A DNA stretch of 5,087 bases from Chloroflexota bacterium (GTDB lineage Bacteria; Chloroflexota; UBA4733). Under the pieces are notes generated by a model. It saw nothing but the letters and a program-made list of their open reading frames with translations. It was not told where the DNA came from and did no database searches. A program made the translations under genes and the position numbers. Positions 3,078-4,878 of the stretch are shown here, piece by piece; within the stretch, counting starts at the first letter, position 1, and every line of letters begins with the position of its first letter. The stretch is taken from NCBI GenBank assembly GCA_023381895.1, contig JAMCTA010000177.1:1-5087 (forward strand). The letters are read 5' to 3'.

Positions 3078-3686
3078 ATGCAAGACCTTGCGCGGCAACT
3101 GCGCCCAGCCATCGTCAGCTTGGCGATAATAACTGTTCTACTTGGCCTGGTCCCTGCCTCGGTCTGCTGACGCGCCGGCAAACTAGTCTTCCCGTTTCAG
3201 GCGAACGGGAGCCTGCTCAAGCGTCCTAATGGCACGGTGCTAGGCTCGACCCTCATCGGCCAGGAGTTCACAGCAGCGCGGTACTTCCATCCCCGCCCTT
3301 CCGCAACGCTGAGCACGGCAGCTACGCCTGCCCCGCAACCCTACAACGCTGCTAACTCCGGCGCCTCCAACTTGGGGCCAACCAACAAGGTCCTGATCCA
3401 GACCGTTGCCCAGCGCGCAGCCGCTTATCGCAAGGAGAACCACTTGGCACCGAAAGCGCCGGTACCGGTCGACGCCGTCACGGCGTCTGGTAGCGGGCTT
3501 GATCCCGACATTAGTCCGGCTAACGCCGCCTTGCAGGCGCCACGCGTGGCTCAGGCTCGTGGGTTGCCCCTCGCTACCGTGCAGGCGCTAGTCGCCAGGT
3601 ACACGACGGGGCGCACCTTCGGCATTCTGGGGGAGCCGCGCGTGAACGTGTTGCTGCTCAACCGGGCGCTGGATACGCTGAAGTGA
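3078..3686 (+). pseudogene. kdpC: Potassium-transporting ATPase subunit KdpC, interrupted by in-frame TGA
   Basis: KdpC is the single-span subunit that stabilises the Kdp complex and raises its K+/ATP affinity. Read from ATG 3078, the start MQDLARQLRPAIVSLAIITV and the membrane helix match the family, but codon 31 (3168-3170) is TGA. The same frame then continues without shift through LVFPFQANGSLL, GQEFTAARYFHPRPSA, NSGASNLGPTN, VTASGSGLDPDISP, RVAQARGL and a C-terminal LGEPRVNVLLLNRALDTLK-type end to TGA 3684-3686. Total length is 202 codons plus the final stop; E. coli KdpC is about 190. The conserved Tyr-Pro after the helix is missing, and codons 24-33 read LVPASVC*RA. That segment is an exact reverse complement of part of kdpD. 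Restart at GTG 3237 would give a 149-residue protein without the membrane anchor, so normal function is unlikely if the sequence is correct. A sequencing or assembly error remains possible. Confidence 0.85.
3146..3176 (+). repeat. 31-bp perfect inverted repeat, kdpC arm (carries the stop codon)
   Basis: Every base of this stretch is the reverse complement of 3762-3792 in kdpD, and identity ends abruptly on both sides. In kdpC it spans the third base of codon 23 through codon 33, including TGA at 3168-3170. The flanking kdpC codons are normal and in the same frame. It occupies the place of the conserved Tyr-Pro region, so this arm is probably the recipient copy. Confidence 0.93.
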
Positions 3687-3699
3687 GTAGGCAGATCTG

Positions 3700-4878
3700 A
3701 TGGATGAGGACGCCCGGCCTCGCGAGGCCAACCGCATGTCGCCAGAAGAGGCGCTGGAGGTGGCGCGTCAGCAGACCGAGGCAGGGACCAGGGGGCGACT
3801 GCGCATCTACCTCGGCATGGCACCTGGAGTTGGCAAGACCTACGCCATGCTGCAGGAGGGGCGGCGACGCAAGGTACGGAGCACCGATGTAGTGATCGGC
3901 TTTGTCGAAACCTACGGCCGCCCCGAGACCGAGAAAGCGATCGACGACCTGGAGATCATTCCCCGGCGAAGGGTCGAGTACCGCGGTGTTGTGCTGGAGG
4001 AGATGGACACGGAGGCCGTCCTCCGCCGCCGGCCCCAAGTGGCGTTGGTGGATGAGCTCGCCCATAGTAACGCCCCGGGCTCCAAGCACAAGAAGCGCTG
4101 GCAGGACGTGGAGGAGCTACGTGATGCTGGCATTACGGTACTCTCCACCGTCAACATCCAGCATCTCGAGAGCTTGAAAGACGTCGTTGAGCATATCACT
4201 GGCGTGAAGGTAGGCGAGACGCTTCCAGACAGCGTCATCGATGGGGCCGATGAGGTAGAGCTCATCGATATGGCGCCACACGCTCTCCAGCAGCGCATCC
4301 GCCACGGCAACGTCTATCCCCAGCAACAGGCGCAGCGAGCGCTGGCAAGCTTTTTTCGAGAGGGCAATCTCACGGCGCTGCGAGAACTGGCGCTGCGACG
4401 CACCGCCCAAGGGGTCGATCAGCAACTCGAGCGCTACATGCGTGGACATGCTATTGCCGGCCCCTGGCCGGCAAGTGAGCGCGTCATGGTCTGTATCGAC
4501 GACCGTGCGATCTCGCAACGCCTCTTGCGCCGGGCTTGGCGTATTGCCGAGGCCATGCATGCTCCCCTCGTCGCCGTCACGGTGGCAAGTCCGGATCTTT
4601 ATCGCCGGTTAGATCCGGAGCGGCGAAAGCAATTGGAAGCACACCAGCGTATGGCAGAAGATCTGGGCGCTGAGGTCGTGATGCTCCATGGGACAGACGT
4701 GTCGGCGGAGCTGATTCGCTACGCACGGGAACACAACGTCGACCAGCTCGTAATCGGCCACTCGACCAAAGGTCCCTGGACAGAGCTGCTGCACGGATCG
4801 GTAGTGCGCAAGGTGCTCAAGGCGAATCCGGACATCGACGTTCACATCATCGGCGATCGCGGATTCCAGAAAGGATAG
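3700..4878 (+). CDS. kdpD: Short KdpD: N-terminal sensor and USP domains, no histidine kinase
   Basis: KdpD normally senses K+/turgor and phosphorylates KdpE. This 392-residue protein holds only the cytoplasmic N-terminal half. The KdpD ATP-binding domain (about 34-245) has Walker A GMAPGVGKT at 39-47 (Lys46), Walker-B-like VALVDELAHSNAPG with Asp118-Glu119, then KRWQDVEELRDAGI, STVNIQHLESL and FFREGNLTALRELALRR. A universal-stress-protein domain follows (about 259-387) with VIGHSTKGPW near 352-361. The protein ends cleanly where the four membrane helices of full-length KdpD (about 900 residues) would begin; no DUF4118, HisKA or HATPase segment appears downstream. Free-standing short KdpD proteins are known in some bacteria, so this may be a natural form; in S. 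aureus the KdpD USP domain binds c-di-AMP. ATG 3700 is 13 bases after kdpC with a weak AGG 8 bases upstream; Met13 (3736) is an alternative start. Confidence 0.93.
   Translation: MDEDARPREANRMSPEEALEVARQQTEAGTRGRLRIYLGMAPGVGKTYAMLQEGRRRKVRSTDVVIGFVETYGRPETEKAIDDLEIIPRRRVEYRGVVLEEMDTEAVLRRRPQVALVDELAHSNAPGSKHKKRWQDVEELRDAGITVLSTVNIQHLESLKDVVEHITGVKVGETLPDSVIDGADEVELIDMAPHALQQRIRHGNVYPQQQAQRALASFFREGNLTALRELALRRTAQGVDQQLERYMRGHAIAGPWPASERVMVCIDDRAISQRLLRRAWRIAEAMHAPLVAVTVASPDLYRRLDPERRKQLEAHQRMAEDLGAEVVMLHGTDVSAELIRYAREHNVDQLVIGHSTKGPWTELLHGSVVRKVLKANPDIDVHIIGDRGFQKG
3762..3792 (+). repeat. 31-bp perfect inverted repeat, kdpD arm (probable source copy)
   Basis: This stretch covers the last base of codon 21 and codons 22-31 of kdpD, encoding ARQQTEAGTR, just before the conserved GRLRIYLG strand and Walker A. 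It is identical to the reverse complement of 3146-3176, with 585 bases between the arms. It reads as an ordinary, in-frame but poorly conserved linker, so it is more likely the donor than the recipient. Confidence 0.93.

What the first reader, a model, noticed from the sequence alone, without database searches (positions are those of the whole stretch)
3146..3792. Perfect 31-bp inverted copy of kdpD coding sequence inside kdpC
Positions 3146-3176 are the exact reverse complement of 3762-3792, and identity stops sharply at both ends. The kdpC arm replaces the codons of the conserved Tyr-Pro region at about the same length, without shifting the frame, and brings in the TGA. An exact 31-bp match at the lesion is far beyond chance. 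The best reading is a templated replacement: a replication template switch to the complementary strand about 600 bases away, or short-tract conversion. An amplification or assembly chimera is the main alternative. It is a clear small example of templated inverted mutation creating a pseudogene.
Basis: partly seen in the sequence, partly recalled or inferred. Interest (0 to 1): 0.75.

Follow-up and report, generated by a model that had tools for sequence, protein, structure and literature searches.

The report
Inverted kdpD scrap overwriting kdpC
In one metagenome contig, a stretch of about 20-30 letters from a neighbouring gene appears, copied backwards, in place of a conserved part of a potassium-pump subunit gene and stops it early; it is a tidy example of a known kind of copying mistake, but only raw reads can show whether the cell or the sequencing made it.

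Summary
Confirmed: 3146-3176 is the exact reverse complement of 3762-3792 (31 bp, 585 nt apart; about 1e-11 expected). A near-identical relative (P0001; 167 of 169 residues identical after the patch) shows KdpC before the change: codons 24-34 read LVYPLAITGAG there, LVPASVC*RAG here, same length. All 16 KdpC relatives aligned carry Tyr-Pro at this place. The kdpD copy still reads as KdpD, so the direction is kdpD to kdpC. At least 10 bases changed, all within 3153-3171; the outer 7 and 5 bases are compatible with what was there before, so the copied tract is 19-31 nt, perhaps with microhomology at both ends. Best reading: a length-preserving templated replacement, like short-patch illegitimate recombination or a double template switch. 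An amplification or low-coverage chimera is not excluded: I know of only this contig, and no reads or genome were available. Four unusual residues in the donor arm and a cluster of four other amino-acid differences near the patch are unexplained. Functionally it is a broken kdpC in an otherwise normal, probably Chloroflexota, kdpABC-D locus.

The parts
3..698 (+). kdpA, 3' part (runs off the contig start)
   Evidence: Pfam KdpA, E 6.5e-100
711..2846 (+). kdpB, 711 aa, open
   Evidence: NCBIfam TIGR01497 kdpB 1078 bits, cut-off 528
3078..3686 (+). kdpC frame, interrupted by TGA at codon 31; the part after the patch still matches KdpC
   Evidence: translation; Pfam KdpC 4.9e-63 for 3177-3686
3146..3176 (+). 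31-bp arm in kdpC, exact reverse complement of 3762-3792 (recipient)
3153..3171 (+). core that must have changed: at least 10 substitutions against any coding of P0001 residues 26-32
3146..3152 (+). left 7 nt, compatible with prior kdpC sequence (Gly-Leu-Val codons): candidate microhomology
3172..3176 (+). right 5 nt, compatible with prior kdpC sequence (Gly-Ala codons): candidate microhomology
3168..3170 (+). premature TGA
3762..3792 (+). 31-bp arm in kdpD (donor): last base of codon 21 plus codons 22-31
   Evidence: reads ARQQTEAGTR in the KdpD frame
3700..4878 (+). kdpD, short form (KdpD sensor domain plus Usp), 392 aa, open
   Evidence: Pfam KdpD 1.2e-96 and Usp 2e-14; best NCBIfam hit NF038185 KdpD-like non-kinase sensor, 416 bits, below its cut-off of 550

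Best explanation
A short piece of the strand complementary to the start of kdpD was used as donor at a same-length stretch of kdpC about 600 bp upstream, with short chance identities (up to 7 nt on the left, up to 5 nt on the right) as landing points. It replaced 19-31 nt without changing the length and put a TGA at codon 31, ending KdpC in its N-terminal membrane helix (helix position recalled). Committed mechanism: microhomology-dependent double illegitimate replacement in the cell, most likely by annealing of a short single strand at a replication gap (the SPDIR type), less likely by two polymerase template switches. Shown: exact templated copy, direction, equal length, broken frame, end identities compatible with the relative's protein. 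Inferred: that it happened in the cell, the single-strand intermediate, and loss of Kdp function.
For: Exact 31-bp inverted match, expectation about 9e-12. P0001 (202 aa, 99% identity after the patch) and the other 15 aligned relatives have the Tyr-Pro region; residues found only in the window lie at codons 18, 26-28 and 30-32. Equal length. Changes confined to 3153-3171, ends compatible with the earlier codons. No inverted similarity between the two sites in the 3 of 12 loci where both could be extracted: 10, 8 and 7 of 31 positions match, chance about 8, which speaks weakly against an old quasi-palindrome. PMC7954356 (passages read) reports 5.5% of its ape template switches as length-neutral, which favours a strand-replacement route over a free double switch.
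Against: I know of only one contig with it, with no reads and no genome; the protein search would hardly show others, since even the window's own broken KdpC is not among the 120 rows. The pre-event DNA is known only through a relative's protein. The other four amino-acid differences to P0001 all lie in codons 16-51 (P 0.006 weighted, 0.002 unweighted, post hoc), which would also fit a poorly covered or chimeric stretch. SPDIR itself is recalled; the primary paper was not held.
Confidence: 0.6

Rival explanations
1. Artefact: a molecule that switched strand twice during whole-genome or library amplification, or a low-coverage assembly stretch resting on one such read.
For: PMC1855051 (passages read): 406 of 475 MDA chimeras were inverted, 337 of these 406 under 10 kb apart, and 93.5% of inverted segments under 10 kb apart had complementary bases at the junction. 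Spacing and possible microhomology here look the same. One contig known. Amino-acid differences to P0001 cluster around the patch.
Against: The passages describe single junctions with intervening deletion; here two junctions return to the exact register with equal length. kdpB and kdpD are open. It is not known whether the sample was amplified.
Confidence: 0.3
2. Classical quasi-palindrome correction: the polymerase switched within a hairpin of two similar inverted arms and homogenised them.
For: The outcome (perfect inverted repeat from imperfect arms) is the textbook product; described for E. coli (PMC7202029, passages read) and for yeast coding genes (PMC8604942, passages read).
Against: 585-nt spacer; the yeast study searched spacers of 70 or less and found shorter ones among switching repeats. 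No prior inverted similarity in the 3 of 12 distant relatives that could be read.
Confidence: 0.07
3. Reverse direction or third donor: the kdpD arm was rewritten from kdpC, or both arms from another source.
For: The kdpD arm departs from 12 close relatives at 4 of its 7 conserved columns (hypergeometric P 0.001, post hoc).
Against: The arm still reads as KdpD (R23, G29, R31 and the following GRL kept). Of the four odd bases, one agrees with the kdpC codons of P0001, one is ambiguous and two conflict (my reading). KdpD windows of 10 codons starting at 201 and 208 also hold at least 4 unique residues.
Confidence: 0.03

Closest known systems
Short-patch double illegitimate recombination (SPDIR), Harms et al. 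2016 PNAS (content recalled; seen here only as a reference entry in PMC8116780)
   Same: Short segment of intragenomic origin replaces a stretch between terminal microhomologies and gives a cluster of substitutions
   Different: There experimental, in Acinetobacter (recalled); here inferred from one contig of a probable Chloroflexota; inverted donor only about 600 bp away
Quasipalindrome-associated template-switch mutation (E. coli thyA, lacZ reporters; PMC7202029, passages)
   Same: Makes a perfect inverted repeat by copying the complementary strand
   Different: Starts from pre-existing imperfect inverted arms that can form a hairpin; here 585 nt apart and no such arms seen in the few relatives readable
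Four-point short-range template switch (PMC7954356, passages)
   Same: An inverted copy of a nearby tract explains a mutation cluster
   Different: Mostly changes length there (5.5% neutral); that study is on great apes
MDA inverted chimera (PMC1855051, passages)
   Same: Inverted, near, complementary bases at the junction
   Different: Single junction with intervening deletion, not a length-neutral patch

Membership tests
Templated inverted (template-switch type) mutation | New sequence is an exact inverted copy of a nearby tract | tested here: met
Templated inverted (template-switch type) mutation | Recipient derived, donor ancestral | tested here: met
   0 of 16 KdpC relatives have the patch; donor reads as KdpD although 4 residues are unusual, so the donor half is less firm
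Templated inverted (template-switch type) mutation | Occurred in the organism, not in the sample preparation | not testable with these tools
   no reads, no genome
SPDIR | Microhomology at both ends of the replaced tract | tested here: inconclusive
   7 and 5 nt compatible with P0001 codons; actual pre-event DNA unknown
SPDIR | Donor is a short single strand, RecA-independent | not testable with these tools
   recalled criterion; needs experiment
Quasipalindrome correction | Pre-existing imperfect inverted arms | tested here: inconclusive
   7-10 of 31 matches, chance level, but only in 3 of 12 loci and these are distant relatives
Quasipalindrome correction | Short spacer allowing a hairpin | tested here: not met
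   585 nt

The most novel reading that the evidence does not exclude
One event rewrote or mutated both sites: a single-stranded intermediate, error-prone or G-to-A mutated, was fixed at kdpD and, inverted, in kdpC. This would explain the four unusual G-to-A-type residues in the donor arm and the clustered amino-acid changes around the recipient, i.e. templated patching coupled with local hypermutation in Chloroflexota.
Probability: 0.05. Interest if true: 0.6.

Novelty: new member of a known kind. Interest (0 to 1): 0.35.

Why it matters
If real, it is a natural, fully readable case of a short inverted templated replacement in an uncultured bacterium, while the papers seen here treat this mutation type in E. 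coli reporters, yeast and apes. It shows how one event can look like a dense cluster of independent substitutions plus a stop. It also warns that scans of metagenome contigs for pseudogenes should check stops against inverted local copies.

Tried and rejected
No whole genome is held for the window, so copy number of the 31-mer elsewhere in the genome is unknown. Exact matches to the 31-mer are absent from viral contigs and from the 80 loci held at the time.

The third protein search, with the first 146 aa of KdpD, was meant to find the kdpD start on P0001's contig; the 120 rows listed hold no near-identical protein and no 1741-bp contig.

Five genome searches (counter at 653 of 2000 genomes, the phylum search being a draw of 400) listed no KdpC closer than 73% (G320), so the pre-event DNA could not be read. 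Searches used a strict cut of 1e-62.

Programmed inversion was considered: flipping 3146-3792 would swap kdpC and kdpD ends and restore nothing; rejected by anatomy. Deaminase-type hypermutation of the donor arm was considered: the inferred C-to-T contexts (5' G, C, G, C, assuming the relatives' codons) show no common motif; inference only.

Control: 7 of 105 loci (not all independent, some are overlapping stretches of one genome) have an exact inverted match of 21 or more with arms over 30 apart. I printed four of the seven (L007, L072, L100, L061). L072, L100 and L061 look by eye like hairpins or short repeats; reading frames were listed for L007 only, where one arm lies in a frame upstream of the kdpD match. 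L005 and L084 (76-bp arms at a stretch end) and L075 (arms of the same length and near-identical places to L061) were not printed. So no second kdpC-kdpD patch was recognised, but coding status of the others was not tested.

Rfam found nothing at gathering scores. Papers: the SPDIR primary paper is not held; one search found none with the full name, one search found papers that cite it, and the passages of PMC8116780 and PMC5312590 gave only reference-list and side mentions; some searches were otherwise seen as listings. No claim is made that such a case in kdpC is absent from print; one search on kdpC and pseudogene was seen as a listing only.

Full report
What is there. The window appears to be one whole contig of 5087 bp (its KdpD, P0121, is listed with one contig, longest 5087), and no genome is held for it. 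It carries the end of kdpA, a complete kdpB, kdpC and a short kdpD, all on the + strand. Those close relatives of KdpC and KdpD that I checked for an organism name are labelled Chloroflexi or Chloroflexota (P0008, P0013, P0125, P0126), so the source is probably an uncultured member of that phylum (inference).

The repeat. 3146-3176 and 3762-3792 are exact reverse complements over 31 bp. The next base differs on both sides. The expectation for such a match in this window is about 9e-12. No other site in the window matches within 3 mismatches.

What was replaced. P0001, a 202-aa KdpC from another contig of 1741 bp (sample unknown), is 99% identical over the 169 residues after the patch, that is 167 of 169. 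Aligned without gaps, codons 24-34 read LVYPLAITGAG in P0001 and LVPASVC*RAG here. I aligned 16 relatives out of the 120 listed (P0001-P0013, P0015, P0017, P0018; the 189-aa P0014 and P0016 were left out): 16 of 16 have Tyr-Pro at codons 26-27 and 0 of 16 have the window's residues there. Residues found in the window and in none of the 16 are at codons 18, 26, 27, 28, 30, 31 (the stop) and 32. A KdpC of solved structures (6hra chain C; E. coli by recall) also has Tyr-Pro at this place.

Size of the copied tract. Comparing the window's codons with every possible codon of P0001's residues, at least 10 bases changed, all between 3153 and 3171. Bases 3146-3152 and 3172-3176 are compatible with the earlier codons. 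The copied tract is thus 19-31 nt, and end identities of up to 7 and 5 nt may have guided it. The actual earlier DNA is not known.

Direction. The arm in kdpD keeps the KdpD pattern just before GRLRIYLG and kdpD is open, whereas the arm in kdpC destroys a conserved motif. So the donor is kdpD. A caveat: the donor arm departs from 12 close KdpD relatives (P0122-P0133, of 119 relatives listed) at 4 of 7 conserved columns (R to Q, A to T, G to E, A to T), each reachable by one G-to-A change (change type inferred from codons); hypergeometric P 0.001, chosen after seeing the data. KdpD windows of 10 codons starting at 201 and 208 also hold at least 4 unique residues, so this may be ordinary divergence.

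Surroundings of the patch. Outside the patch the window and P0001 differ at codons 16, 18, 37 and 51 and nowhere in 52-202. Weighting columns by their variability among relatives, all four falling at or before codon 51 has P 0.006; unweighted 0.002, again after the fact. Low coverage with errors, a strain breakpoint or error-prone synthesis would each do.

Was there an older inverted similarity? For 12 loci with kdp genes I tried to extract both homologous sites by pattern; both were found in 3 (L087, L088, L001), matching at 10, 8 and 7 of 31 positions, the chance level. These are distant relatives, so this is weak evidence against a quasi-palindrome.

Controls. In 105 related loci (760 kb, some overlapping), 7 have an exact inverted match of 21 bp or more with arms over 30 apart. 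Four of the seven were printed: three look by eye like hairpins or short repeats, and in the fourth (L007) one arm lies in a frame upstream of the kdpD match. The pair L005/L084 has 76-bp arms at a contig end, as a fold-back would. No second kdpC-to-kdpD patch was recognised; whether the other arms are coding was not tested.

Mechanism. Known routes that give an inverted local copy are quasipalindrome template switching (PMC7202029, PMC8604942; passages read), four-point template switches (PMC7954356; passages read) and short-patch double illegitimate recombination (Harms et al. 2016, recalled; seen as a reference entry). The long spacer, and weakly the lack of earlier inverted arms, argue against the hairpin route. 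Equal length is rare in the ape template-switch set (5.5%) and natural for replacement by an annealed single strand of matched register (inference). I therefore favour a replacement of the last type, at 0.6 including the condition that it is real. MDA chimeras (PMC1855051; passages read) share orientation, distance and complementary ends, so an artefact keeps 0.3, although a double junction returning in register is not the form those passages describe.

Consequence. KdpC would end after 30 residues. In-frame GTG/TTG codons exist further down (first at 3237) but would give proteins without the N-terminal helix (inference). kdpB and kdpD remain open, so the lesion is young, a minor variant, or not real.

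Verdict.

Noticed in passing
3762-3792 (kdpD codons 22-31): The donor arm has four residues unlike 12 close relatives, each explainable by a single G-to-A change.
   Followed up: partly
3078-3230 (kdpC codons 16, 18, 37, 51): All four other amino-acid differences to the near-identical P0001 lie close to the patch; none in codons 52-202.
   Followed up: partly
2847-3077: 231-nt gap between kdpB and kdpC. In one search, of the 40 loci printed (of 90 with kdpC), 32 gave a rough extrapolated gap: 22 of 32 at most 67 nt, 10 of 32 between 87 and 291. No repeats of 10 nt or more inside it, no Rfam match.
   Followed up: partly
3700-4878: kdpD is the short form: sensor domain plus Usp; best NCBIfam hit is the non-kinase KdpD-like sensor NF038185, below its cut-off. 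The 12 closest relatives are 352-430 aa.
   Followed up: no
4938-5087, minus strand: Open frame of 49 codons running off the contig end, with ...IPGSSHWVLHEQPEVV... near its end; resembles an alpha/beta-hydrolase C-terminus (from memory); no Pfam match up to E 0.1.
   Followed up: partly
L005:1-76 and 163-238: Exact 76-bp inverted repeat at the end of a metagenome contig, a likely fold-back assembly artefact.
   Followed up: no
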